Source: Prochlorococcus marinus (GTDB lineage Bacteria > Cyanobacteriota > Cyanobacteriia > PCC-6307 > Cyanobiaceae). From it: a DNA stretch of 64,000 nucleotides. The translations under genes were made by a program, and so were the position numbers. Positions 15,007-62,572 of the stretch are shown one piece after another (within the stretch, counting starts at the first letter, position 1; each line of letters opens with the position of its first letter). Under the pieces are notes generated by a model, which saw only the letters and a program-made list of their open reading frames with translations, was not told where the DNA came from and ran no database searches. The stretch covers positions 1-64,000 of the forward strand of contig NZ_CVSX01000023.1 of NCBI RefSeq assembly GCF_001180305.1, written 5' to 3'.

Positions 15007-15341
15007 TATCCAAAAAAATTTGTGTCTGTGGAAATCTATTAAAAACAAATATATGTTGTTGAAAAAAATATAAAAAATTAATTCTTTTGTTGAATAAATT
15101 AAAAAAGTATAAATAAATTTAATATTTTCAACAAATTAAGTAATTTTTTCCACTAATGTCACTGTTCATAATATGAGTAAGAAACATATTAAAGTTAATA
15201 ATTCCACAGTTTCCACAGTAACTACTACTATTAATTATTTTGTTTTATTATTTATTTTTTATTAGAAGAAGAGTATAAAAACCTTATTGAATTTAATTTA
15301 CGAAAAAAGTATATTGTGTTTATTAAAAGTTCCAAATTCCA
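15007..15341. other. oriC: Probable replication origin (oriC) between thrC and dnaN
   Basis: A 335-bp gene-free stretch, long for this genome, and extremely AT-rich. It holds DnaA-box-like 9-mers: TGTGGAAAT at 15027-15035 (ATTTCCACA on the minus strand), TTTTCCACT at 15146-15154, and a directly adjacent pair AATTCCACA at 15200-15208 and GTTTCCACA at 15209-15217. An inverted repeat TTTGTTGAA (15086-15094) / TTCAACAAA (15127-15135) lies between, and a T-rich run at 15230-15262 could be the unwinding element. Placement next to dnaN agrees with the conventional origin of Prochlorococcus chromosomes. GC skew was not computed. Confidence 0.65.
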
Positions 15342-16499
15342 ATGGAGATTATTTGTAATCAAAATGAATTAAATAATGCTATACAACTAGTAAGCAAAGC
15401 TGTTGCTTCGAGGCCAACACATCCAATTCTCGCAAATATACTTTTAACAGCCGATCAAGGAACAAATAAAATTAGTTTGACAGGATTTGACCTTAATCTA
15501 GGCATTCAGACTTCTTTTGATGGAACTGTTAAAAATAGTGGAGCTATTACAATACCTTCAAAACTTTTATCAGAAATAGTCAATAAATTACCCAATGAAT
15601 CACCAGTCTGTTTAGAAGTTGATGAGAATTCAGATAATATTTTAATAAAAAGTGATAGAGGTGCTTTTAATCTTAAAGGCATACCGTCTGATGATTATCC
15701 AAATTTACCATTTGTTGAAAGTGGAACATCTTTAAATATTGATCCTAGTTCTTTCTTAAAAGCTTTAAAGTCTACAATATTTGCAAGTAGTAATGATGAT
15801 TCTAAGCAATTACTTACAGGGGTCAATTTTACTTTTAAACAAAATTATTTAGAGTCTGCTTCTACAGATGGCCATAGATTGGCAGTTGCATTAATTGGTA
15901 AGGAAGATCAGATCGAAAACAAGGACAATTCATCTTTAACTGAAGGTGATTTATCAGTAACTATTCCAACTAGATCATTAAGAGAAATTGAAAAATTAGT
16001 TTCTTTGAAAAGCTCAGAAAACTCAATAAAGCTTTTTTATGACAAAGGTCAGGTAGTGTTTATTTCTTCCAGTCAAATAATCACAACAAGAACTCTTGAA
16101 GGTAATTATCCTAATTATTCACAATTAATCCCAGATAATTTTTCTAAAATTTTTAATTTTAATACACAAACATTAATTGATGCTCTAGAAAGAATTGCTG
16201 TTTTAGCTGATCAGCAGAGCAGTGTTGTTAAGATTAAATTGGATAATACAGATTTAGCTTCTATAAGTGCAGATGCACAAGATATTGGTAACGCTAATGA
16301 ATCAATACCCGTTTCCTACACTGGAGAAAATTTTGATATTGCCTTTAATGTTAGATATCTTTTAGAGGGTTTAAAAGTTATTGCTTCTGAAAATGTACTT
16401 TTAAAATGTAATCTTGCAACTACTCCAGCTGTTTTTGTACCGGAAGATAATCTTAATTCTTTTACTTATCTAGTTATGCCTGTTCAGGTTCGTTCTTAA
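15342..16499 (+). CDS. dnaN: DNA polymerase III beta subunit (sliding clamp)
   Basis: Ring-shaped processivity clamp of the replicative polymerase. 385 residues in three tandem clamp domains; typical blocks are RPTHPILANILL, LTGFDLNLGI, FASSNDDSKQLLTGVNF, STDGHRLA, and a C terminus TYLVMPVQVRS that matches the usual MPMR-like end. First gene after the putative origin and head of the dnaN - PRC-barrel - purL - purF run. Confidence 0.97.
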   Translation: MEIICNQNELNNAIQLVSKAVASRPTHPILANILLTADQGTNKISLTGFDLNLGIQTSFDGTVKNSGAITIPSKLLSEIVNKLPNESPVCLEVDENSDNILIKSDRGAFNLKGIPSDDYPNLPFVESGTSLNIDPSSFLKALKSTIFASSNDDSKQLLTGVNFTFKQNYLESASTDGHRLAVALIGKEDQIENKDNSSLTEGDLSVTIPTRSLREIEKLVSLKSSENSIKLFYDKGQVVFISSSQIITTRTLEGNYPNYSQLIPDNFSKIFNFNTQTLIDALERIAVLADQQSSVVKIKLDNTDLASISADAQDIGNANESIPVSYTGENFDIAFNVRYLLEGLKVIASENVLLKCNLATTPAVFVPEDNLNSFTYLVMPVQVRS

Positions 16500-49902: not shown

Positions 49903-51489
49903 ATGAGTCAAAAATCTTTAAAAAAAGAAAGAGATCCTTCAATATTAATTTTAGATTTCGGATCTCAATATTCTGAATTGATTGCTAGAAGAATTAGAGA
50001 AACTAATGTTTTTTCTCTTGTAGTAAGTAATCTGATTTCAATTGAGGATATTCATGATATTAATCCTAAAGGCATAATTTTGAGTGGTGGCCCAAATTCT
50101 GTCTATGAAAAAAATGCTCCTAAATGTGATGAAAAAATTTTTGACTTGGGGATTCCTATTCTTGGTATATGCTATGGAATGCAATTAATGGTCAAAGAAC
50201 TTGGAGGAGTTGTTACCTCAGCAACTAAAAAAGCCGAGTATGGTAGAGCACCAATCAATACAGATTTAGAATCTGAACTTTTTGCTGATGTGGATGATAA
50301 ATCTATAATGTGGATGAGTCATGGAGATTCAATAACATCTTTGCCTAGTGGATTTAAAAAGATCGCGCATACGGAGAATACGGTTCATGCTGCAATAGCA
50401 AATGATTTAAAGAAATTATTTGGCGTACAATTTCATCCAGAAGTTATTCATTCAGAGTGTGGGATGACATTAATTAAAAATTTTGTTTATGGAATCTCAA
50501 ATTGTTCAGCTGATTGGACAACAGAAACTTTTTTAGAGGAAACAATCCCTAGAATTAAAGAGCAAGTCGATAATAAGAAAGTTTTACTTGCTTTATCAGG
50601 AGGAGTGGATTCCTCAACTCTTGCTTTTTTACTTAATAAAGCAATTGGGAATCAGCTTACATGTATGTTTATCGATCAAGGCTTCATGAGAAAAGGTGAA
50701 CCGGAATTTTTAATGAATTTTTTTGATAAGAAATTTCATATTAAAGTTGAATATATAAATGCTAGGGAAAGATTTATTGCAAAATTAAAAGGGGTAACTG
50801 ATCCAGAACAAAAAAGAAAAATTATTGGTGAAGAATTTATTAGGGTATTTGAAGAAGAAAGCAATAGACTAGGACCTTTTCAGTATCTAGCTCAAGGAAC
50901 TCTTTATCCAGATGTTATTGAAAGCGCAGGTACAAATATTGATCCTAAGACAGGAGAGAGAATAGCTGTAAAAATTAAGAGTCACCATAATGTGGGCGGA
51001 TTACCAAAGGATTTACAATTTAAACTAGTTGAGCCTTTAAGAAAACTGTTTAAGGATGAAGTTCGAAAACTTGGAGCTGCTTTAGGTTTGCCGGACGAAA
51101 TTATAAAAAGACATCCATTTCCAGGGCCAGGTTTGGCCATAAGAATTTTGGGTGAAGTCACTAATGAAAAACTAAATTGTTTGAGAGATGCAGACTGGAT
51201 AGTAAGAGATGAAATTAAAAAAGCAGGTCTTTATAATGATATTTGGCAAGCATTTGCAGTATTGTTGCCTGTTAAAACTGTAGGAGTTATGGGAGATAAA
51301 AGGACTTATTCGTGGCCAATTGTTTTACGTTGCGTTTCCAGTGAAGATGGGATGACAGCTGATTGGTCAAAAATTCCTTTTCAAATTTTAGAAAGAATTT
51401 CTAATAGAATAGTTAATGAAGTAGTTTCAGTTAATAGAGTTGTTTATGATATTACAAGTAAGCCTCCTGGAACTATTGAGTGGGAATGA
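49903..51489 (+). CDS. guaA: GMP synthase (glutamine-hydrolysing)
   Basis: XMP to GMP. Class I glutaminase domain with GICYGMQLM (nucleophile Cys) and [13 protein letters not shown], then PP-loop [15 protein letters not shown], and the dimerisation domain with [14 protein letters not shown] and the usual C terminus PPGTIEWE. 528 residues, complete. Its final 21 bases and following 150 bp recur in diverged form at 59794 onwards; the gene is intact but its 3' end is the probable integration site of the island that follows. Confidence 0.97.
51469..51489 (+). other. guaA 3'-end core, copy A (attL-like)
   Basis: GGAACTATTGAGTGGGAATGA, encoding GTIEWE and the stop. Copy B (59794-59814) matches at 17 of 21 positions and encodes the same six residues. 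Continuous identical core: GAGTGGGA. Taken as the left boundary of the inserted segment. Confidence 0.7.
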
Positions 51490-51528
51490 AAAGAAGGGTA
51501 TAAACCCAGTTATAGATTCAAAAACTTG

Positions 51529-51611
51529 GTTTCCCTCAGGTTTCCCTCAGAAATTAATAATCCTATTTGCAATGGTTTTAAGAATGTAGGTTTCCCTCAG
51601 GTTTCCCTCAG
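51529..51611 (+). repeat. Two tandem pairs of an 11-bp unit, left side (arm-site-like)
   Basis: GTTTCCCTCAG at 51529-51539 and 51540-51550, then again at 51590-51600 and 51601-51611, all four identical. The first pair begins 40 bp past the guaA stop. The same pair occurs once more at 59706-59727, before core copy B. Direct tandem 11-mers beside a core sequence resemble integrase arm-binding sites. Confidence 0.9.
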
Positions 51612-51624
51612 ACTAAAATTTTTG

Positions 51625-51660
51625 TCTCTATAGAGAAATCGTAGAGTTTTAAATTTCTCT
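51625..51660. terminator. Palindrome and hairpin downstream of guaA
   Basis: TCTCTATAGAGA (51625-51636) is a perfect palindrome; GAGAAAT just after it can also pair with ATTTCTC about 15 bp further. Related sequences occur after core copy B (59938-59976) and copy C (62484-62509). It may terminate guaA or be part of the attachment region. Confidence 0.5.
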
Positions 51661-51696
51661 ACACCTTGTATTTAAGATTTTAAATTTGTTTATGTG

Positions 51697-51825
51697 CTAG
51701 TAATGAGGTGGTTCTGATTCTTCAAGAGGAAAATAGGTATCCTCATCATTACCTTTTCTCTTCTTTCTGAAATACTCTTCGGATGGATCTAATCCATCAT
51801 TATCGTAATTGGGTTCCTTTTCCAT
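51697..51825 (-). CDS. Small acidic hypothetical protein (42 aa)
   Basis: ATG at 51823-51825, reading MEKEPNYDNDGLDPSEEYFR and ending EESEPPHY. Highly charged and proline-rich, no hydrophobic segment. 13 bp downstream of hsdR on the same strand. Unrecognised; might be an edge gene of the island or chance. Confidence 0.45.
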   Translation of the reverse strand: MEKEPNYDNDGLDPSEEYFRKKRKGNDEDTYFPLEESEPPHY

Positions 51826-51838
51826 TGATCAATAAAAA

Positions 51839-54800
51839 CTAACTCGCTACTAATTCCTCTCCAAGAGTCTCTGCTTGTTGAAGGACAGTTTCAACTGCAG
51901 TAATTTGTTCATCTGGAGGATACTTATATCTCTTCAAAAGGGTTTTGATTTTGAGTCTCAGTTTTGCTCTAACATTTTCCTTATATTGCCAGTCGATATT
52001 TGCATCTCTTCTCATAATCTCTGCAAGTTCTTTTGCCATATTTGCAAGAACCTCTTCCTTCATTAGTTCATGGGCAGATGGATTATCTGCAAGAGCATCA
52101 TAGAAAGATTGTTCTGCAGAAGATAAACCAAGTGATACGCCTTTTTCCAAATCTTCTCGAAATTTCTTTGCCATTGCTATGAGTTCTTCTATAACTTGTG
52201 CTGCTTCTATTGCTCTGTTTTTATATTTATTCAATGATGCTGAAAGCATTTCACTAAAGTTTTTTTGTTTGACTAGATTTGTTCTGAATTTACTTTTCAC
52301 TTCATCATTTATGAGTTTTTGAAGCAACTCAACTGCTAAATTTTTTTGAGGGATCTTACTAACTTCTGATAAAAATTCATCTGACATGATACTTATATCT
52401 GGATTCTTTAGACCAGCAACTTTGAAGACGTCAGTTATGCCATCAGAAACTAAAGACTCAGATAGAAGTTGTTGTAATTCAAATCCATAATCTTTAGGTG
52501 GACCCCCTGCAATATCTCCTTTTATAAGCATTGCTCTTATTGCTTGAAGGAATGCAATTTCGGGACTATGTTCGATTGCTTCATCAGTTGTTCCACATAG
52601 TGCAAATGCTTTTGTGATTTTGAGAACAGTATCGCAATATCTTTGTTTGCCATCATCTATTTCGAGAATATGATCAAGGCAATTTGGAATAATTTCTAAT
52701 GCTTTTCCTTTCTCTCTAAAGTGACTCCATTCAACTGGATGCAGTAGATCTTTTGCGATCTGTATTTGTTCGAGAAGTATACGAACTGCTTCACTTGTAT
52801 CAAGAGTTGGTTTTCCTGTTCCGTTTGCTGCTGTGTAAGTAGCGAGTGCATCTTTGAGTTGTGGAGCAATACCTATGTAATCAACAATCAATCCACCTGG
52901 TTTATCCTTGAAAACTCTATTGACTCTTGCAATTGCTTGAGCAAGATTTGCTCCCTTCATTGGTTTATCCACGTACATAGTTGCTAAACAAGGGGCATCA
53001 AAACCCGTCAACCACATATCTCTGACGAGAACAATTTTCAGTGGATCATTTGGATCTTTGAATCTGTTTTCTAAATCCTTTTTTTGTTGTTTGCTTGTGT
53101 GATGAGGTTGAAGAAGTTCCGACTCAGATGCAGATGCAGTCATCACAACTTTTATAGAACCTTTCATATGATCCGAATCATTCCATTCTGGTTTGAGATT
53201 GACTATTTCGTTGTAAAGACGCGCACAGATTTCTCTGCTCATTCCAACAATCAATGCTTTCCCCGGTTGTGTTTTAGATCTTTGTTCATAGTGGGCAATT
53301 AGATCTTTTGCTACTTGTTTCAGTCGAGGTTCTGCTCCAACTAATGCTTCTAATGCTGCCCATCTACTTTTCGCTTTTTCCGTAGAGGAAATATCATCTT
53401 CATCTTCAAAAATTTCATCAAACTTACTATCTAAAGTCGGAGTACTGCTTTCTTTGAGTTTTAGTTTTGCCAGTCTTGACTCGTAATAAATCGGAACTGT
53501 TGCTCCATCATCTACTGCTTGCTGAATGTCATAAACAGAAACGTAATGACCAAAGACTGCTTGGGTATCTCGATCATCTTGAGAAATTGGAGTTCCTGTA
53601 AATGCTAAGAAAGTTGCGTTTGGAAGAGCATCTCTTAGTCCTTTTGCTAATCCATATTTCACTTCTCCTGTCTTTGAATCAATTCTTCCTTTGAAACCAT
53701 ATTGAGTTCTATGTGCTTCATCACAAATCACCACAATATTTTTTCTATTAGTCAATGCAGGGAATTTTTCTTCATCCTTTTCTGTTGCAAATTTTTGAAT
53801 GGTTGTAAAAATAATTCCTCCACTAGGTCTGTTATCTAGTAATTCTCTTAGATCTTTTCTTGACTCTGCTTGCTTAGGTTTTTCTCCTAATAAATCTCCA
53901 GATCCAGTAAATACTCCAAATAACTGACCATCAAGATCTTGCCTGTCAGTAACCATAACTAGGGTTGGATTTTGAAGTCTTTTATCGGTTAGTAGTTTTC
54001 CTGCTAAACATGCCATCTCGATACTTTTTCCGGCACCTTGGGTATGCCAAACAACTCCACCTTTACGATCACCATCTGGTTTACTTGCTTCTACCACTCT
54101 TTCAACTGCTGTATTGACTGCGTGGAACTGATGATAAGCAGCAATCTTTTTGATAATTTCTTTTTCTTCTTCAAAGACACAGAATGAACGTATGAAATCT
54201 AATAATCTTTTTTTATCGAATAATCCTCTAACTAAAGTTTCTAATTGTTTGAACTTTCCAAGTGGATCTAAATCTTGTTCTTTTTCAATAACTCTCCATT
54301 GCTGGAATCTTTCTTCATTTGCAGAAATTGACCCTACTTTTGCATAAGTACCATCACTAATTACTAAAAGAACATTTGGAGTAAACAGATCAGGAATATC
54401 AACTTTATAAGTTTTTAGTTGATTGAAAGCATCCCAAATATCTGTTTTTTCATTTGCTGGATTTTTCAGTTCTATTACTGCTATTGGGAGACCATTTATA
54501 TAAACAACAACATCAGGTCTTCGATTATTTTTTGGACCACTAATTGCTAATTGATTTACGACTAACCAATCATTTTTATCAGGATTATCAAAATCAATTA
54601 TTTTTAGGCGGATTCCAATTTCTTGATTACCTTCCATGTAAGAGATAGGAAGTCCTTTGGTCATCCATATATGAAATTGACGATTCGAGGCAACTAATCC
54701 AGGAATATTTGGATTAGTAATTTGTAGAACTGCTGCATCAATAGTTTTACTAGGAACTTCAGGGTTCAACTTTATAAGTGCTGATCTCAAACGATCTTCC

Positions 54801-54940
54801 AGAATAACCTTTCTAAAATCATCTCTTTCTGGAGATTTTGAATCTGGAGCAATATCTGGACCATGAACAAATTTATATCCAAGATCTTCAAACCATTCAA
54901 TTGAAGTTTCTTCTATTAGATTTTCATCTATCAATGACAT
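51839..54940 (-). CDS. hsdR: Type I restriction enzyme HsdR (R subunit)
   Basis: 1033 residues. N-terminal PD-(D/E)xK nuclease (PD at 142-143, IELK ending at 159), then SF2 translocase motifs: Walker A QGAGKS (301-306), DEAH (407-410), FTGTPIS and QAIARVNRVFKDKPGG. C-terminal helical domain for contact with M2S. It cleaves DNA after ATP-driven translocation when the target site is unmethylated. Last gene of hsdM-hsdS-hsdS-hsdR; its ATG overlaps the preceding hsdS stop by one base. Appears intact. Confidence 0.96.
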   Translation of the reverse strand: MSLIDENLIEETSIEWFEDLGYKFVHGPDIAPDSKSPERDDFRKVILEDRLRSALIKLNPEVPSKTIDAAVLQITNPNIPGLVASNRQFHIWMTKGLPISYMEGNQEIGIRLKIIDFDNPDKNDWLVVNQLAISGPKNNRRPDVVVYINGLPIAVIELKNPANEKTDIWDAFNQLKTYKVDIPDLFTPNVLLVISDGTYAKVGSISANEERFQQWRVIEKEQDLDPLGKFKQLETLVRGLFDKKRLLDFIRSFCVFEEEKEIIKKIAAYHQFHAVNTAVERVVEASKPDGDRKGGVVWHTQGAGKSIEMACLAGKLLTDKRLQNPTLVMVTDRQDLDGQLFGVFTGSGDLLGEKPKQAESRKDLRELLDNRPSGGIIFTTIQKFATEKDEEKFPALTNRKNIVVICDEAHRTQYGFKGRIDSKTGEVKYGLAKGLRDALPNATFLAFTGTPISQDDRDTQAVFGHYVSVYDIQQAVDDGATVPIYYESRLAKLKLKESSTPTLDSKFDEIFEDEDDISSTEKAKSRWAALEALVGAEPRLKQVAKDLIAHYEQRSKTQPGKALIVGMSREICARLYNEIVNLKPEWNDSDHMKGSIKVVMTASASESELLQPHHTSKQQKKDLENRFKDPNDPLKIVLVRDMWLTGFDAPCLATMYVDKPMKGANLAQAIARVNRVFKDKPGGLIVDYIGIAPQLKDALATYTAANGTGKPTLDTSEAVRILLEQIQIAKDLLHPVEWSHFREKGKALEIIPNCLDHILEIDDGKQRYCDTVLKITKAFALCGTTDEAIEHSPEIAFLQAIRAMLIKGDIAGGPPKDYGFELQQLLSESLVSDGITDVFKVAGLKNPDISIMSDEFLSEVSKIPQKNLAVELLQKLINDEVKSKFRTNLVKQKNFSEMLSASLNKYKNRAIEAAQVIEELIAMAKKFREDLEKGVSLGLSSAEQSFYDALADNPSAHELMKEEVLANMAKELAEIMRRDANIDWQYKENVRAKLRLKIKTLLKRYKYPPDEQITAVETVLQQAETLGEELVAS

Positions 54941-56295
54941 TAGATTCCAACCTCGTCAATCATTTTTTCTGCATCAGTAATTCTAAGTTCTCCTGAGATG
55001 AGTTTTAGAAGAAGAAAATCTCTGATTTCTTCAAGTACTTTTGATTCGTTCAAACTTTGTTTTATTTTCTGAAATAATGGATTACATACATTGTCAAATG
55101 CTTGTTTACATTCAAAAAGAGGGTCAAGAATTTTCATCTCGCGAAGCATCTTTGAATTCACAGCAGTTGCAATTGATGAAGTACTTCCAAGGGATCTAAA
55201 ATCAAAATTAGAGAAGAGACAATAAGAATAAGAACTTGGGATTTGATTTTTGCTTGAAACAAAATGTGCAATCGCTTCATTTGTAAGCATTCTAGTAGGA
55301 GTTATTAGTACCCTGCCAACAGTCAATTTGAAACTTATGATTACTGTTTCTTCTGGGACAATCTTTATATTGAAATTATATACAGCATCTTTTGTAAGAA
55401 ACTCTGAAGTTTCTAAAGCATAAACTGAATTATTTCCCATATCTTTTATAGAAACCCAAGGAATATCATCTTTACTTTGACTAAACCAGCAAGACTCTTT
55501 TCTGGGAGGGGTTTTCCCAATAGAAATATCATACAGATCTGAAGATAAACAATATTCCCATCCCTTAGGGATCTTCCCAACATCAGAATCTTCAAAAGAA
55601 TCAGGAAATAAATCACTTATCTCATCAGGTAATCCAGTTGAACGACCTTCTGCTTTTGCTTTTACAGGATCAAAATCAATAAACCAAGATTTGAAAAGCG
55701 ATTGTGCTATTTCTTCAAGAGTTTCATTGTTATTCCTTATTAGTTCAATTTTTTCATCAAGAGTTCCAAGTATGTGAGAAATTCTGTTTTGTTCTTTTAT
55801 ATTTGGGGGATATAAAACCTCTAATCCTGAAAGCAAATTAGTATTCAATGAAGGCATTGTTGCTCCAACAGCAATAGATCTAATATGATTTTTTATCTTT
55901 GAATGACCCAGATAATAAGAAAGATAAGTAGGATCAATTTTTGATTTATCTGGTCTAACACGAAGACATCTTCCTGAAAATAACCATCCAGTTTCTGCAT
56001 CTCTTACAAGTGATCTTCGATCTACAGACCCAACTCTACTAAAAACTATATCTCCCTTTCTAAGAATAAATTTTGAAAGTCTTTCTTTATCGAAGTCTGA
56101 TACTTTTGGGGTATTCTTATGAGAAATTCTATTTGATAATAAATGTTCGACAGTAATAATTGGAGTTCCAATCTTGACATAATCAGATGAATGTAATTGA
56201 CTTCCAAAAGGACCTGTTTGTATTCCTTCTTTATTCACGCAAATCGCTCCAAGTGTTGAAGTTTTCCAATCTTTTGGGGAATTCTTGAAAAGCAT
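54940..56295 (-). CDS. hsdS: Type I specificity subunit HsdS, second copy
   Basis: 451 residues, two target recognition domains: TRD1 (about residues 8-170) and TRD2 (about 245-400), separated by conserved helical regions (EQNRISHILGTLDEKIELIR with [14 protein letters not shown], and a C-terminal LISGELRITDAEKM). The central segment including [18 protein letters not shown] is nearly identical to that of the other HsdS, but the TRDs differ, so the two recognise different DNA halves. 3 bp downstream of the first hsdS. Confidence 0.93.
   Translation of the reverse strand: MLFKNSPKDWKTSTLGAICVNKEGIQTGPFGSQLHSSDYVKIGTPIITVEHLLSNRISHKNTPKVSDFDKERLSKFILRKGDIVFSRVGSVDRRSLVRDAETGWLFSGRCLRVRPDKSKIDPTYLSYYLGHSKIKNHIRSIAVGATMPSLNTNLLSGLEVLYPPNIKEQNRISHILGTLDEKIELIRNNNETLEEIAQSLFKSWFIDFDPVKAKAEGRSTGLPDEISDLFPDSFEDSDVGKIPKGWEYCLSSDLYDISIGKTPPRKESCWFSQSKDDIPWVSIKDMGNNSVYALETSEFLTKDAVYNFNIKIVPEETVIISFKLTVGRVLITPTRMLTNEAIAHFVSSKNQIPSSYSYCLFSNFDFRSLGSTSSIATAVNSKMLREMKILDPLFECKQAFDNVCNPLFQKIKQSLNESKVLEEIRDFLLLKLISGELRITDAEKMIDEVGI
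55557..55730 (-). repeat. hsdS conserved-region repeat, copy 1
   Basis: About 174 bp encoding the central spacer; direct repeat of 56841-57014 with roughly 16 mismatches by hand alignment, almost none in the first 55 bp. Separated by 1284 bp, which is about one TRD plus spacer. Confidence 0.9.
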
Positions 56296-56298
56296 TTA

Positions 56299-57552
56299 TC
56301 AACTAATTTCTTCCATCATTTTTTCAGCATCAGGAATTCTAAGTTCGCCTGAAATAATTTTAGGCAAAAGAGAATCTCTAAGATTTTGAAGTAATGAACT
56401 TTCTGAATCACTAATTTTTTTTCGTAAAAACAACTTTCTAACTTGTTCTTCAAATAAAGAAATCACATCAGGAGATGGAATAACTTGCTGATTCATATAA
56501 GCAATATTTCTGTTCAAACCTGGTACTGCTGAATCTGCTGACAAATTAGACAATTTTTGATTCAATAAAACAAAGAAAAGGAAAGTCATTTCTGAAATTT
56601 CAGATTTTGGTTTTACATAAAACGTAGTATCAATTGGAAAAAAATTATCATCTGACCATTTCACTATCCCTGGATTTCCTTTTCTTCCGACAATAATCCC
56701 TGGTCCTTTGACCAAATAATCTTCATGAGTACCAACTTTTCCATTTGAACCAAATACTGCGAAAGCACCCTTTATTCGTTCTGATTCTTTCAAGGGTTTA
56801 CCATAAGCAAGTTCTATTATTTCTCCTAGTTTCTTTACTTCCCATCCCTTAGGGATCTTCCCAATATCAGAATCTTCAAAAGAATCAGGAAATAAATTAC
56901 TAATCTCATCAGGTAATCCATTTGAACAACCTTCTACTTTTGCTCTTACAGGATCAAAATCAATAAACCATGATTTGAATAGTGCTTTTGCGATGTCTTC
57001 AAGAGTTTCATTAGTCTTTTTATTGAGTGCAATTTTCTCATCAATATTCCTTAGAAAATTACTAATCTCTTTTTGTTTTTCAATTTTGGGAAATTTTACA
57101 GGAAAAGTTTTGAAATCTTTCAAAACTATTCTTGGTATAACACTACCCGTCATATATCCGCTCTTTGCAATGTGCTTAGTACTTGGGGTTTCAAAAAAAT
57201 ATTTCAAAAAATAAGGGTCAAGATCTTTATTAGTTCTAAATATTGCAATTGAGGATAAAAGGCAGACATCTCTTTCATCGTTGTGAACACATACAGTTTC
57301 TAATACGGATCCATCTTTTGCTATCAACACATCGCCTTTATTAGGGCAGCAACCTGATCTTTTCAGATTCTCATATTCTTCTTCAGAAATTTTTCTTGAT
57401 GATTCATAATCGATACCAAAATTAGTCATATCTTTTACTGATGCCATAGGTTTGCCAAATTCAGTACTTTTAGGAGACCTATGTGAACCATCAGTAATTA
57501 GCGAACAAAGTTCATCTAATTCTTTTACTTGCCATTCAAAACTCATATCCAA
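56299..57552 (-). CDS. hsdS: Type I specificity subunit HsdS, first copy
   Basis: 417 residues with two TRDs: the first begins [20 protein letters not shown], the second follows [20 protein letters not shown]. Conserved regions: [20 protein letters not shown] with [32 protein letters not shown], and [20 protein letters not shown] at the C terminus. Overlaps hsdM by 17 bp. Both S genes look complete, so neither is an obvious silent cassette. Confidence 0.93.
56841..57014 (-). repeat. hsdS conserved-region repeat, copy 2
   Basis: Partner of 55557-55730; same orientation. The 3' ends of the two hsdS genes (54955-55050 and 56310-56400) also resemble one another, giving a second pair of direct repeats. 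Confidence 0.9.
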
Positions 57553-59113
57553 TTTTCTTCAAATTATTAGCGATCTGCTGATCTAATTTTGCTCCTTCTT
57601 CTTGTTGCTCTTTCAGTAAAGAAGTAAGTCTCTTCATCTTCTCCTCAAAAGGTTCCCCATCATCTTCCTCTTCTGGAGCACCAACGTATCTACCTGGCGT
57701 AAGAACGAAATTATTCTTTTCAATTTCTTCAAACTTTGCTTTGTAGCAAAATCCTGCAACATCTTCATACGATTCTTTTTCTCTCCAAGATTGAACAGTC
57801 TCTGAAATTTTGGAAATATCATCATCTGTCAGAATTCTCTCCACACGATTTTTCATTGTTCCCATTTGACGAGCATCAATAAATAAAGTTTCTCCTCTTC
57901 GATCTCTTCCTCTTTGGGTTTTATCGTTAGTCAAAAACCATAAACATACAGGTATCGGTGTATTCAAAAATAATTGTCCAGGTAAAGCAACCATAATTTC
58001 AACTACATCTTTTCTAACCATTTCTTCTCTAATATTTCCTTCATTACTTGTATTGGAACTCATAGAACCATTTGCAAGAACAACTCCTGCTTGCCCACCT
58101 GGTCTCAACTTCCAAAGCATATGCTGCAACCATGCATAGTTGGCATTACCTGCAGGTGGTCTTCCATATTTCCAACGAACATCACTCTCATATTTTTCTC
58201 CACCCCAATCAGAGATATTGAATGGTGGATTTGCAAGTATGTAATCAAATTTTTGATCAGGATGTTGATCCCTTGCAAAAGTATCTGCGGGTTCTTGACC
58301 TAGATCACTAGCGAACCCACGAATTGCCAAGTTCATCGCCGCTAATCGCCAGGTAGTTGGATTGCTTTCTTGCCCATAAATTGAAATATCATCTTTTCTT
58401 CCACCTTGTTTTTCAATAAATCTTTCACTCTGCACAAACATTCCACCTGATCCACAACATGGGTCATAAACACGTCCTTTGTCTGGGGATAAAACAGCAA
58501 CGAGAGTTTTTACAACATGTGCAGGAGTATAGAATTGTCCCCCTTTTTTACCTTCAGCGCTTGCAAATTGACCTAAGAAGTACTCATATACTTCACCCAA
58601 TACGTCGCCTGCTTTTTCTCCTTCTCCAAAACCAATTGTTGAAATCAAATTTACCAATTCGCCCATTCGACCTGGTTCTAATTGAGCGGCACCAAATCGC
58701 TTATCTAATTTTCCTCTAAGAGTTGGGTTTTCATTTTCAATTGCAACCAACGCTTTATCAATAAGTTGTCCAATTTCAGGTTGTGGCGCTTTATCTCTAA
58801 GTGCTTCCCACCTTGCATCTGCAGGAACCCAGAAAACATTTGCTTGAGTGTAATAATCTCTATCTTCTAATGCTTCTTGATGATCTTTTGGATCATCTCC
58901 AAGGTAATAATCCGAATCAGGATTACTTACCATTGCTAAAACCTTTTTCTGCTGTTCTTCAAAAGTATCGGAAATATATTTCAGAAATATCATCCCTAGA
59001 ACAAGGTGCTTATATTCTGCAGCATCCATTTGAGCACGTAATTTATCTGCACTTGCCCAAAGAACTGCTTTGAAATCTTTTGGAGTATCTTCTTTCTTTT
59101 TAGGAATGACCAA
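57536..59113 (-). CDS. hsdM: Type I DNA methyltransferase HsdM (M subunit)
   Basis: 525 residues. HsdM_N helical domain ([20 protein letters not shown]), GQFYTP at 192-197, SAM-binding DPCCGSGG at 217-224 and adenine-N6 catalytic NPPF at 295-298. Methylates the site read by HsdS and, with HsdR, forms the restriction complex. First gene of the operon, transcribed away from the two small genes at 59220-59617 across a 106-bp spacer. Composition appears somewhat less AT-rich than the housekeeping genes, suggesting transfer. Confidence 0.96.
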
Positions 59114-59219
59114 TAAAAATAATTGATCTCATTTTATACCTAGTTTTTATTTTGTTTGATTCAATGCTGACTTTATGACATGAGATTTGTTATTTTTCTA
59201 ATTAAGAAAGAATTAAATC

Positions 59220-59414
59220 ATGATTACTAATAAGAGATACCAAACGTTATTAATGCTTGCGACTACAGGCAAACCTTTAAATAAAGATGCTACGGAAGAA
59301 GAAAAGAAATTTTACGAAGAATGCAAACATGACTATAAAGTCATGAAGGAAACCGCAAAAAAACATGGCATAAAGAATCCAGTTTTAGAAATACCAATGG
59401 AGGTAGATTTTTAA
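59220..59414 (+). CDS. Small hypothetical protein (64 aa)
   Basis: Charged, helical-looking protein starting MITNKRYQTLLMLATTGKPL and ending PVLEIPMEVDF. No signal, membrane segment or recognisable HTH. First of two equal-length genes 8 bp apart, divergent from hsdM; might regulate or protect against the restriction system, but nothing in the sequence shows it. Confidence 0.6.
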   Translation: MITNKRYQTLLMLATTGKPLNKDATEEEKKFYEECKHDYKVMKETAKKHGIKNPVLEIPMEVDF

Positions 59415-59422
59415 GAGGTATT

Positions 59423-59617
59423 ATGCAACCACCAAAGACTTCTGAAGAATTAGCAGAAATGTATCCTGATTTAGAACCTTGGAAAAGGGATGAACTAGAA
59501 GTTTGGCACAGAGGATGGATTACAAAAATAATGACAGGAGAAGCGACTTCTGCAGAATATAATGCCGCAATACCTCGTCATCCAGATCCTCATCATCCTG
59601 AAGATGATGAAGAATAA
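59423..59617 (+). CDS. Small hypothetical protein (64 aa)
   Basis: Begins MQPPKTSEELAEMYPDLEPW; tryptophan-rich centre (WKRDELEVWHRGWITKIM) and a His/Pro/Asp/Glu tail (PRHPDPHHPEDDEE). Soluble. Likely co-transcribed with the preceding gene. No family recognised. Last gene before the core repeat at 59.7-59.8 kb. Confidence 0.6.
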   Translation: MQPPKTSEELAEMYPDLEPWKRDELEVWHRGWITKIMTGEATSAEYNAAIPRHPDPHHPEDDEE

Positions 59618-59705
59618 GTTAGTAGATGATTTCAAAAATTTTTAATTTACTGTGACTGAGTAATTAATTTTGAGTTTTTGTTAAATACAACCTGCCTAAA
59701 AAGAG

Positions 59706-59727
59706 GTTTCCCTCAGGTTTCCCTCAG
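59706..59727 (+). repeat. Tandem pair of the 11-bp unit, right side
   Basis: GTTTCCCTCAG at 59706-59716 and 59717-59727, identical to the two pairs downstream of guaA. It lies 66 bp before core copy B. With the left pairs it brackets the segment 51490-59793. Confidence 0.9.
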
Positions 59728-59793
59728 GAAAATGTGTGTTATTATGGGTTCAAACATGTTGGTATCACTACGTTTATGACTGCCTTGTTTCTC

Positions 59794-59814
59794 GGTACTA
59801 TAGAGTGGGAGTAA
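59794..59814 (+). other. guaA 3'-end core, copy B (attR-like)
   Basis: GGTACTATAGAGTGGGAGTAA, 17/21 identical to the real guaA end and encoding the same GTIEWE-stop, with differences at synonymous positions. This is what remains when an element integrates into a gene's 3' end and supplies a replacement tail. Confidence 0.7.
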
Positions 59815-59853
59815 AGGAAAAGTAGTAAATTCAGTTATAGATTAAATAAGTAG

Positions 59854-59925
59854 GTTTCACGTAAGATCATCCAACCTATTTGTAATGCTTTTCGACTTTA
59901 GTATTTCACGTAGGTTACTCGTGAG
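59854..59925 (+). repeat. Diverged repeat units after core copy B
   Basis: GTTTCACGTAAG at 59854-59865, then ATTTCACGTAG (59903-59913) followed by GTTACTCGTGAG (59914-59925), in the places held by GTTTCCCTCAG pairs after guaA. The last two form an inverted repeat TCACG / CGTGA with 9 bp between. A different repeat version may mean a different recombinase specificity. Confidence 0.65.
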
Positions 59926-60068
59926 GGTAAACGGCATGTCTATCGAGAATTCGTATAAAAATAAATTTCTCTATACTTTCCACGTTTTTATGGTTTAATT
60001 TTCTGACTAATGGGTACTAAAAGATACAAACTACTTTTCTAAATGTTTAATTTATTTCAGAAGCGTTA

Positions 60069-62186
60069 TTAATTTTTACAAACCCAAAATTGATACATAG
60101 CGCTAAAAGTTAATGGATATTTAGTTTCGAATTCCGCCCAGTTTTCTAATTTTGTTTGTTGTTTATCTTTTGGAAAAGAATTCAAGTAAAGATTTTTCAA
60201 TTGTTGTGGTAGAAAAAATCCTAGAAAAGTAAGTTTATGATCGTTTAAGATTTCAATTAATTGGTTAATTGTGAATCTATGTTCTTTAGCATGAAAGCAT
60301 AGATCACGACATTGAGATAAAGAAAAAAAGTCTTCACTTATTTTTAACTTATTTAAATTATCTATCTCCCCTGAGAAAATTTTTTCCCTAAAAAAACGAA
60401 TATTGGATTCAGTTGGTTTTAATTTCATTTCCTTGATGTAATTCCTTGCTGTTACTATTTCTTTTCTTGCTAATTCGCTATATAGGCCTAATTTTAGAAA
60501 ACCATTCTTTTTTAGGACTCCTAGTAATAATTCTAATCCTTTAGATGGATTATCCATATGATGTAAGACTCCGCCACATTCAATAATGTCAAAACTTTTA
60601 CCTAAAAGACCAATCTCTAAGATATCCATTTGCACAAGTTCGACATTATTAATTCCAAGTTCATCTAATTTTCTTTTTGCATAGGCAAGACTAGATAAAC
60701 TTAAATCAATAGCAGTTATTACGGAATTTTCATATTTCAATGCTTGTAATATTTGTTTGCCAGTACCACAACCAGCGATAAGAACTTTTGGTTGTTTGTT
60801 AGTTACATTAATATTAATTCTATTTGGAGAGATTTCGTTATTAATTGCTTCTTTAATGGATATCTTATAGTCTCTAAAGAATCTTATAAATCTCCATCTT
60901 GGATATGGATTTTCTTCATATTGAGATTGAACTTTTTGAGTGATATCGTCTTTGAATGTTCCTAATTTTTTGATTTCTTTAGATAATTCATTTTCCCTTA
61001 AAGGTTCCTTAACTTGTAATTGCATTAATTGCGTATAAGTTTTAGAAGAAGAATGAAAAGATTGTAATAATGGCAAATCATTAATAAGTTTATAAAGAGG
61101 GAAATAGCAAGAAAGAATTGAAATATTTATCTCATTTATCTCTCCTTTTCTAAGTTTTTCAATAATATTTTGAAGATTTATATTTTCTTCTTTACTTACA
61201 GAATAAACATATTCGTTAATGAAACACTGTTTTCCTAATCCAATAATAAATTCTAATTCGTGTTCATTTATGTCATTTTCTTCTTTAGAAACTTTATTAC
61301 AGATCTCTTTTCTAAATGATTTTAGAACTTTTTCTAATTCAGGATCACAAAAAATTATTTTTTCCATGGCATTCATTATTGATTTGTTACTTGTAATTAA
61401 GTCTATTTTTGAGAAAGTACAACCAGACTTTTCTAGATTAGTAATTAAATAGTTTTTATATAAAAAATTAAATGCAGGGAATAAATCTTTATGCGAAAGA
61501 TCCTTTTTCTCTAGACAAAGATTTAATATTTTTTTTAATTTTTTTTTATCAAATTGAGAAGGATCGGAGTATCTTAATAGATCGGTGATTGCACTAAATG
61601 TATAAACGTATTTTGGATTGAGTTCAATTACTCTCAAATAAGAATCCAGTGAATCTTCTCTTTTACCAAGGTCTTTTCTTATATTGCCTAAGTTGAAATT
61701 TGCCATGGCAAAGTTCGGATCAATTTCTATTGCTTTACGCGTAAAAATTTCTGCTTTTTGTAATTCTCCGAGACTCTGAAATACGTTTCCTAAGTTGCAG
61801 TATGCCATGGCAAAGTTCGGATCAATTTCTATTGCTTTACGCGTAAAAATTTCTGCTTTTTGTAATTCTCCGAGACTCTGAAATATTTTTCCTAGGTTAG
61901 AGTATCCCATTGCATAGTTAGGATTTATTTCTATCGCTTTACGCGTAAAAATTTCTGCTTTTTGTAATTCTCCAAGATTAAGTAATATCATTCCATAATT
62001 GCTAAAAACTCTGTGATCTAAAAATCCTTTATTAATAAAATTTTCATAATACTTTCTTGCTTCTTGAATATTTCCTTGAGAATGTTGCTTGAATGCTCTA
62101 GTTATTATTTGATTTTTAATGGTTTGTTCATCACTATAAATTTTTTTCTTTTTAGAATTCTTATGCTTTTCACCAAAACCCTTCAT
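60069..62186 (-). CDS. TPR-repeat protein with C-terminal SAM methyltransferase domain
   Basis: 705 residues from ATG 62186 (MKGFGEKHKNSKKKK); an upstream ATG at 62291 would add 35 residues of unlike, hydrophobic sequence. TPR repeats fill the N-terminal region (unit GELQKAEIFTRKAIEIDPNF repeated). The C-terminal 240 residues are a class I methyltransferase: KVLIAGCGTGKQIL (motif I), AIDLSLSSLAYAKRKL, ECGGVLHHMDNPSKGL. Between them is a 300-residue helical region not recognised. Substrate unknown; such genes sit in Prochlorococcus islands and may modify cell-surface sugars. The N terminus resembles the sulfotransferase gene upstream. Confidence 0.85.
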   Translation of the reverse strand: MKGFGEKHKNSKKKKIYSDEQTIKNQIITRAFKQHSQGNIQEARKYYENFINKGFLDHRVFSNYGMILLNLGELQKAEIFTRKAIEINPNYAMGYSNLGKIFQSLGELQKAEIFTRKAIEIDPNFAMAYCNLGNVFQSLGELQKAEIFTRKAIEIDPNFAMANFNLGNIRKDLGKREDSLDSYLRVIELNPKYVYTFSAITDLLRYSDPSQFDKKKLKKILNLCLEKKDLSHKDLFPAFNFLYKNYLITNLEKSGCTFSKIDLITSNKSIMNAMEKIIFCDPELEKVLKSFRKEICNKVSKEENDINEHELEFIIGLGKQCFINEYVYSVSKEENINLQNIIEKLRKGEINEINISILSCYFPLYKLINDLPLLQSFHSSSKTYTQLMQLQVKEPLRENELSKEIKKLGTFKDDITQKVQSQYEENPYPRWRFIRFFRDYKISIKEAINNEISPNRININVTNKQPKVLIAGCGTGKQILQALKYENSVITAIDLSLSSLAYAKRKLDELGINNVELVQMDILEIGLLGKSFDIIECGGVLHHMDNPSKGLELLLGVLKKNGFLKLGLYSELARKEIVTARNYIKEMKLKPTESNIRFFREKIFSGEIDNLNKLKISEDFFSLSQCRDLCFHAKEHRFTINQLIEILNDHKLTFLGFFLPQQLKNLYLNSFPKDKQQTKLENWAEFETKYPLTFSAMYQFWVCKN
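61701..61980 (-). repeat. 102-bp tandem TPR-encoding DNA repeats
   Basis: 83 bp at 61701-61783 are identical to 61803-61885 (period 102 bp, one 34-residue TPR). A third copy to about 61980 keeps the GCTTTACGCGTAAAAATTTC block but has diverged. Recent expansion of the TPR array or gene conversion. Confidence 0.9.
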
Positions 62187-62572
62187 AATTTTATATCGAA
62201 GAAAAAGGTAAATTATTTGAATTCTACAACTCACGTATAATTTAATTATTAACGTTGTAAGATTTATTATTTTTCTACAAAAATGTATCAAACTTGAATA
62301 TCCTTCAGATTGCTTTCTATGAATGGGTTATAAGTGAAGAAACCTGTCTTATTCTTCCCTCAAATCAACTGATATGAATATGTTTCTGACAGTCCAATTT
62401 CCTCGTACTATCTAGTTGCAGTAGTTCACTAGGTATTGTGTTATTACTAGTTAGGGATTAGTGGTTTGTCACGGCACTTTGGTAATTTCTCTGCCGAGAA
62501 ATCATAGAGTAGCTTTTTTATCTACAAGATATTTTTCTAATTTTTGTTATAAATAAAATTTTTTGTAATTTA
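62187..62572. other. 386-bp gene-free stretch with weak core copy C
   Basis: Holds the probable upstream region of the TPR-methyltransferase gene (about 62187-62300) and a degenerate copy of the attachment layout: TGAC-rich lead-in, CGTACTATCTAGTTGCAGTAG (62404-62424, 15/21 with copy B) and AATTTCTCTGCCGAGAAATC plus ATAGAG (62484-62509), similar to the palindrome region after guaA. No ORF of note. Confidence 0.5.

What the first reader, a model, noticed from the sequence alone, without database searches (positions are those of the whole stretch)
59794..62510. Third, weaker copy suggests serial stacking at guaA
62404-62424 and 62484-62509 repeat the core and the GAGAAATC-ATAGAG block in the same order, delimiting a second module that holds only the TPR-methyltransferase. 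Divergence rises from A to B to C, as expected if newer elements enter next to guaA and push older ones outward.
Basis: partly seen in the sequence, partly recalled or inferred. Interest (0 to 1): 0.62.

Follow-up and report, generated by a model that had tools for sequence, protein, structure and literature searches.

The report
Stacked mobile gene modules at guaA
In the ocean cyanobacterium Prochlorococcus, small gene packages insert one behind another at the end of the guaA gene, each leaving a copy of that gene's last bases, and the weak third copy flagged here is a real, decayed boundary in such a stack; this marks a hotspot where strains gain and lose genes such as restriction systems.

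Summary
Copy C is the decayed distal end of a module inserted at guaA in a Prochlorococcus genome. Its left half (62323-62422) matches a model built without the window at E=2.5e-11; its right half matches an independent arm (0 of 200 shuffles as good). An orthologous module elsewhere (89% identical DNA) stops matching at window 62423, inside core C.

The locus is a stack. In 23 of 66 genomes a conserved nuclease gene (X) starts 62-97 bp after the start of the guaA core; in the rest 0.12-20 kb is inserted. All 188 arm hits share one orientation and none lies upstream of guaA. Here the stack runs past the window to X at contig position 71465.

Each module has paired "arm words" matching at its two ends and differing between neighbours (13.9 vs 8.8 nt, z about 14), as expected of integrase arm sites. 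A dedicated tyrosine recombinase clade sits directly after guaA in all 14 genomes found with it, but in only about 2% of Prochlorococcus genomes and not in this one, so the window's modules are non-autonomous.

"Newest next to guaA" fits this window but is only weakly supported across genomes. Tandem accretion is a known kind; the guaA site here, word diversity and swappable ends look new.

The parts
49903..51489 (+). guaA (GMP synthase), the host gene whose 3' end is the attachment site
   Evidence: Pfam GATase and GMP_synt_C; 88-94% identical to other Prochlorococcus GuaA
51469..51489 (+). core copy A: guaA 3' end, GGAACTATTGAGTGGGAATGA
51490..51694 (+). near arm of module 1; four GGTTTCCCTCAG-type words plus CTCTATAGAGAAATCGTAGAG block
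   Evidence: near-arm profile 164.8 bits, E=1.6e-50; inner limit set by where homology to the tRNA-Ser-site copy of the cargo begins, 51695
51695..59638 (.). cargo of module 1: type I restriction-modification genes and two small ORFs
   Evidence: the same cargo is found at guaA in G170, at tRNA-Ser in G152 and beside tRNA-Asn in G261 and G155
51839..54940 (-). hsdR-like restriction subunit
   Evidence: Pfam HSDR_N, SWI2_SNF2, T1RH-like_C; PADLOC REase_I, 1139 bits
54940..56295 (-). hsdS-like specificity subunit 1
   Evidence: Pfam Methylase_S
56299..57552 (-). hsdS-like specificity subunit 2
   Evidence: Pfam Methylase_S
57536..59113 (-). hsdM-like methyltransferase
   Evidence: Pfam N6_Mtase, HsdM_N
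59220..59414 (+). small ORF (64 aa), no Pfam match
59423..59617 (+). small ORF (64 aa), no Pfam match
   Evidence: its DNA is conserved with the cargo at the tRNA-Ser site
59639..59793 (+). far arm of module 1, with GGTTTCCCTCAGGTTTCCCTCAG at 59705-59727 matching the near arm
   Evidence: far-arm profile 87.1 bits, E=1.5e-26; 24-nt word shared with the near arm
59794..59814 (+). core copy B: GGTACTATAGAGTGGGAGTAA, boundary of modules 1 and 2
59815..60015 (+). near arm of module 2 (TTACACGTG type, partly decayed)
   Evidence: near-arm profile 103.8 bits, E=7.6e-32; Smith-Waterman 159 against null maximum 36
60069..62291 (-). TPR-methyltransferase, the only gene of module 2 (740 aa from a TTG; the true start may lie further in)
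   Evidence: Pfam TPR and Methyltransf families; 91% identical to the gene of the orthologous module in L036
62323..62403 (+). far arm of module 2, with a decayed GTTACACGTGA-type word at about 62325-62339
   Evidence: far-arm profile E=2.5e-11
62404..62424 (+). core copy C: CGTACTATCTAGTTGCAGTAG, boundary of modules 2 and 3
   Evidence: homology to L036 module 3 ends at 62423
62447..62537 (+). near arm of module 3 (one GGTTTGTCACGG word and the GAGAAATCATAGAG block)
   Evidence: Smith-Waterman 80 against null maximum 34, best match L082
62573..63949 (-). TPR-sulfotransferase, cargo of the third module (which runs past the window's end)
   Evidence: Pfam Sulfotransfer_3 and TPR

Best explanation
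The region downstream of guaA is a tandem array of integrative modules. Shown: each module is bounded by a copy of the guaA 3' end (core), and carries a near arm on its guaA-proximal side (about 205 bp in module 1) and a far arm on its distal side (about 155 bp plus the core), both with paired 10-12-nt words that match within a module and differ between modules. Inferred: a guaA-specific tyrosine recombinase binds the words, recombines the core of a circular module with the core at the end of guaA, restores the gene's end, and so pushes earlier modules outward. The window's modules (type I RM; TPR-methyltransferase; a third with a TPR-sulfotransferase) carry no recombinase, so they moved in trans with an enzyme supplied by another element, or were autonomous once and lost it. 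Copy C is the distal end of module 2; its core and words have decayed, so module 2 is probably no longer mobile.
For: Copy C. Empty and filled sites: in 23 genomes X starts 62-97 bp after the start of the guaA core (22 of them 87-97), and in 26 filled genomes the last core starts 54-94 bp before X. Orientation: far arms 89:0, near arms 99:0, none in the up to 10 kb upstream of guaA. Matched words: mean longest common string 13.85 nt against permuted 8.84, sd 0.35, n=48. Same module, different neighbours: whole module 1 lies at guaA in G170, followed there by TTTTACGTG- and TTTGTCACG-type modules. Recombinase: a clade scoring above 530 bits (next best 143) lies directly after guaA in 5 of 5 Prochlorococcus and 9 other picocyanobacterial genomes, one of the nine a piece broken by a stop; its modules also carry a DUF5906 helicase-like gene and a resolvase. 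No recombinase of the types searched lies in this window or in the contig up to 80 kb.
Against: No excised circle or attP junction was seen; viral-contig scans for arm words and the integrase found nothing. No integrase found so far is paired with the TTTCCCTCAG words of module 1. Word binding by the integrase is inferred from position only. L120 and L126 carry an integrase but have unmatched words at their two ends.
Confidence: 0.85

Rival explanations
1. The array is a relic: modules integrated long ago with their own recombinase, lost it, and now spread between strains only by homologous recombination through guaA, the conserved arms and gene X.
For: Module 2 is about as diverged from its L036 orthologue (89%) as guaA is (87%). 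Only 7 of 266 Prochlorococcus genomes carry the recombinase or a distant relative. Cores and words of distal modules are decayed. Cargo-less modules of 130-148 bp look like deletions between word pairs.
Against: Far arms of module 1 are 96-98% identical to those of L016 and L043 while guaA is 87-89% identical. Matching words at both ends are kept in many modules with different cargo. Intact recombinase copies exist at this very site.
Confidence: 0.3
2. Modules are passengers or derivatives of a phage satellite or tycheposon: the full element (integrase, helicase-like DUF5906 protein, resolvase) is a satellite packaged by phage, and cargo-only modules ride with it.
For: Integrase-bearing modules share a weakly Rep-like gene, a DUF5906 protein and a resolvase. 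The same RM cargo sits beside tRNA-Ser and tRNA-Asn, the kind of site reported for tycheposons (PMC10872708).
Against: No capsid or terminase gene among the proteins scanned; no match of the recombinase in phage records or viral contigs.
Confidence: 0.3
3. The repeats are ordinary intergenic repeats or a conserved guaA terminator, and their order is coincidence.
For: The near arm contains short palindromic blocks such as CTCTATAGAG.
Against: Empty sites lack the arms; all arms are in one orientation; none upstream; insertions fall at a fixed distance from X; words match within a module.
Confidence: 0.02

Closest known systems
Dehalococcoides ssrA-specific genomic islands (PMC3146451)
   Same: Tandem islands bounded by copies of a host gene's 3' end; many without an integration module; the island next to the gene is taken as most recent; accretion of cis-mobilizable elements proposed.
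   Different: Site is ssrA (tmRNA) and the integrase is a CcrB-like serine recombinase; here the site is a protein gene, the recombinase is of the tyrosine type, and modules carry matched arm words of many types.
CIMEs and tandem accretion in Streptococcus (reviewed in PMC5704250)
   Same: Elements with two att sites but no integrase or transfer genes, in tandem with related elements at one gene 3' end.
   Different: No conjugation genes were recognised in the full elements here; modules are 0.1-9.5 kb and widespread, while the full element is rare.
Tycheposons of Prochlorococcus (original paper not held; described in PMC10872708)
   Same: Same host genus; cargo-carrying elements using a tyrosine recombinase; the same RM cargo occurs at tRNA genes.
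   Different: guaA rather than a tRNA gene. Whether the guaA recombinase is a relative of the tycheposon one was not tested.
guaA-integrating islands (GIsul2, ICERspD18B, IMEs; PMC9376610, PMC7775301, PMC5704250)
   Same: Integrase-encoding islands that use the 3' end of guaA.
   Different: Larger elements that encode their integrase; here recombinase-less modules stack. Relation of the recombinases was not tested.
Additive flexible genomic islands, e.g. Methylophilaceae fGI-2 (PMC10872708)
   Same: Recurring copies of the last 20 bp of a host gene (tRNA-Lys) with variable cargo.
   Different: No arm-word structure or cognate recombinase clade is reported in the passages I read.

Membership tests
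CIME / tandem accretion element | Flanked by two att sites derived from one host gene | tested here: met
   Cores A, B, C with arms
CIME / tandem accretion element | No integrase or transfer gene inside | tested here: met
   Recombinase searches find none in the window; Pfam of the cargo genes in the window
CIME / tandem accretion element | In tandem with related elements at the same site | tested here: met
   15 arrays with two or more distal cores
CIME / tandem accretion element | Mobilised by the integrase of a neighbour | not testable with these tools
   Needs an excision or transfer experiment
Tycheposon | Integration at a tRNA gene | tested here: not met
   Site is guaA; no tRNA in the window. 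Related cargo does sit at tRNA genes elsewhere
Tycheposon | Hallmark tycheposon tyrosine recombinase | tested here: inconclusive
   No recombinase in the window's modules; kinship of the guaA recombinase to the tycheposon one was not tested, the original paper not being held
Tycheposon | Replication or packaging hallmark genes | tested here: inconclusive
   DUF5906 and resolvase in integrase-bearing modules only; none in the window
guaA-specific tyrosine-recombinase island | Insertion at the guaA 3' end, gene end restored | tested here: met
   Empty and filled sites
guaA-specific tyrosine-recombinase island | Encodes its own tyrosine recombinase | tested here: not met
   Not in the window; met in 14 other genomes
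Dehalococcoides ssrA-GI / SCC-like serine system | CcrB-like serine integrase | tested here: not met
   The site-linked enzyme is Phage_integrase PF00589; the serine resolvases in those modules are short
Integron cassette array | attC sites and IntI | not tested
   attC folds and IntI were not searched for; boundaries are copies of the guaA end

The most novel reading that the evidence does not exclude
Picocyanobacteria have a multi-site cassette system: small cargo modules without enzymes are moved in trans by rare recombinases, each recombinase reading a particular pair of arm words, and the same cargo can change its end-pieces so as to use guaA in one strain and a tRNA gene in another. In this genome the RM cargo (51695-59638) has guaA ends of 205 and 176 bp; in G152 the same cargo has different ends with GTAGTGTGGGGT words at tRNA-Ser.
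Probability: 0.35. Interest if true: 0.78.

Novelty: new variant of a known kind. Interest (0 to 1): 0.6.

Why it matters
How streamlined ocean bacteria such as Prochlorococcus acquire variable genes is an open question; tRNA-targeting tycheposons are one reported answer. This locus adds a protein-gene hotspot with clear empty sites, sharp module boundaries, a dedicated recombinase clade and swappable ends. It makes mobilisation in trans directly testable, and offers a simple genomic marker (the guaA-to-X interval) for tracking gain and loss of cargo, including restriction systems, across natural populations.

Tried and rejected
Searching for the recombinase in this genome: none of the guaA clade, only the widespread ~389-aa PF00589 protein on contig C40. 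Searching phages and viral contigs for the recombinase and for three arm words: no match. Rfam and tRNA scans of the window: nothing. Judging copy C by its 21-nt core alone: not strong enough, so arms and an orthologous module were used. Age gradient by core mismatches: trend in the right direction, not significant overall. Solved-structure relatives of the recombinase by sequence: none. No structure prediction was run, since PF00589 and position already identify the enzyme class.

Full report
Setting. The window lies in a 244-kb contig (C23) of a Prochlorococcus genome. guaA ends at 51489. Downstream are a type I RM system, a TPR-methyltransferase and a TPR-sulfotransferase. No tRNA or Rfam RNA was found in the window.

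Copy C is real. The core CGTACTATCTAGTTGCAGTAG differs from the consensus at 6 of 21 positions and would be weak alone. Module 2 as a whole has an orthologue in L036, third in its array: one alignment of 2.76 kb at 89% that ends at window 62423 and L036 14680, within one base of the end of the core in both. The TPR-methyltransferases are 91% identical.

The site. Eighty guaA loci from other genomes were fetched. Gene X, a PD-(D/E)XK nuclease-like gene, starts 62-97 bp after the start of the guaA core in 23 genomes (22 of them 87-97): the empty site. In the other 43 loci with X in hand, 0.12-20 kb is inserted. In 26 of them a recognisable last core starts 54-94 bp before X, so the right flank of the empty site is preserved. 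In this genome X starts at C23:71465, so 19.9 kb is inserted and the stack continues past the window; its last end, near 71380, is the most decayed. Arm hits are 188 on the guaA strand, 0 on the other, and none upstream of guaA.

The modules. Each has a near arm and a far arm with paired words, e.g. GGTTTCCCTCAGGTTTCCCTCAG in module 1. Near and far arms of the same module share strings of 13.9 nt on average, against 8.8 (sd 0.35) when pairs are permuted. Words vary widely: TTTCCCTCAG, TTACACGTG, TTTGTCACG, TTTTACGTG, TTTGTTGCG, CTCACCC, ATCACACAC. Cargo varies too: RM, TPR-sulfo- and methyltransferases, an OTCase-like gene with an asparagine-synthase-like gene, a C5 methylase. Fourteen modules of 130-148 bp between two recognisable cores have no cargo, and a few more have a decayed second core.

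The enzyme. A clade of ~455-490-aa tyrosine recombinases (PF00589) lies directly after guaA, mostly just beyond the near arm, in all five Prochlorococcus genomes that have a close copy and in nine genomes of other genera of the family, one of them interrupted by a stop. Close full-length members score above 530 bits; the next best score is 143. Their near arms have their own words, including ACTACCCC and TTTCACC in the other genera. In Prochlorococcus these modules also carry a weak Rep-like match, a DUF5906 protein and a small serine resolvase. The window genome has none of this clade.

Mechanism. Shown: discrete modules, one site, one orientation, matched ends, and a site-linked recombinase. 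Inferred: that the recombinase reads the words, that insertion occurs at the guaA core, and that enzyme-less modules move in trans. Module 1 occurs whole at guaA in another genome (G170), followed there by other module types, which supports independent movement. Its far arm is 96-98% identical to those of L016 and L043 though guaA is 87-89% identical and the 5 kb upstream 82-83%, which suggests recent exchange of at least the ends.

Ends can be swapped. The RM cargo 51695-59638 is present in G152 beside tRNA-Ser with quite different ends (GTAGTGTGGGGT pairs, and an 11-nt copy of the tRNA 3' end), and most of it beside tRNA-Asn in G261 and G155. The same cargo therefore uses several attachment sites. 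How ends are swapped is unknown.

Order of entry. In this window decay rises with distance. Across genomes the trend is in the same direction but weak. The recombinase gene always being in the first module is the better argument, though it could also reflect selection for position.

Relation to known systems. This works like tandem accretion of cis-mobilizable elements, described at ssrA in Dehalococcoides (PMC3146451) and in streptococci (PMC5704250), and like additive islands (PMC10872708). guaA is a known target in other bacteria (PMC9376610, PMC7775301, PMC5704250). I found no paper in the library on guaA insertions in Prochlorococcus; the original tycheposon paper is not held, so prior description there cannot be excluded.

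Caveats. Many genomes are single-cell drafts; word and core counts come from models trained on the same loci, except the window tests, where the window was left out. The permutation test assumes modules are independent, which related genomes are not entirely.

Noticed in passing
window 51695-59638; L170, L172, L174: The same type I RM cargo sits at guaA here and in G170 but beside tRNA-Ser or tRNA-Asn in other Prochlorococcus genomes, with different end sequences.
   Followed up: partly
L172, just after the first module of the tRNA-Ser island (reverse-strand positions about 15295-15500): The tRNA-Ser site also looks like a stack: a second module with ATGTGTTGGTGG words follows an 11-nt copy of the tRNA end, the same architecture as at guaA.
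   Followed up: no
L005, L010, L011, L025, L034, L050, L070, L073, L075, L079 and others: Cargo-less modules of about 139-140 bp (or 147-148 bp) recur between two guaA cores, with different words on a shared backbone; perhaps deletion scars between word pairs, perhaps minimal mobile units.
   Followed up: partly
C23:65718-66782 and 67463-68740 (L002, beyond the window): The distal part of the guaA insertion carries a second mreB-like gene (84% identical to the copy on contig C69) and an ORF that reads like murA.
   Followed up: partly
window 55555-55806 and 56839-57090: The two hsdS genes share a 252-bp segment at 83% identity, which could allow specificity switching by recombination.
   Followed up: no
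window 61684-61989: Three 102-bp tandem repeats (80-94% identical) encode TPR units in the methyltransferase gene.
   Followed up: no
C23:79423-79517 and C40:113564-113592: Weak arm-like (E=0.0037) and core-like (E=0.003) matches elsewhere in the genome; possibly chance.
   Followed up: no
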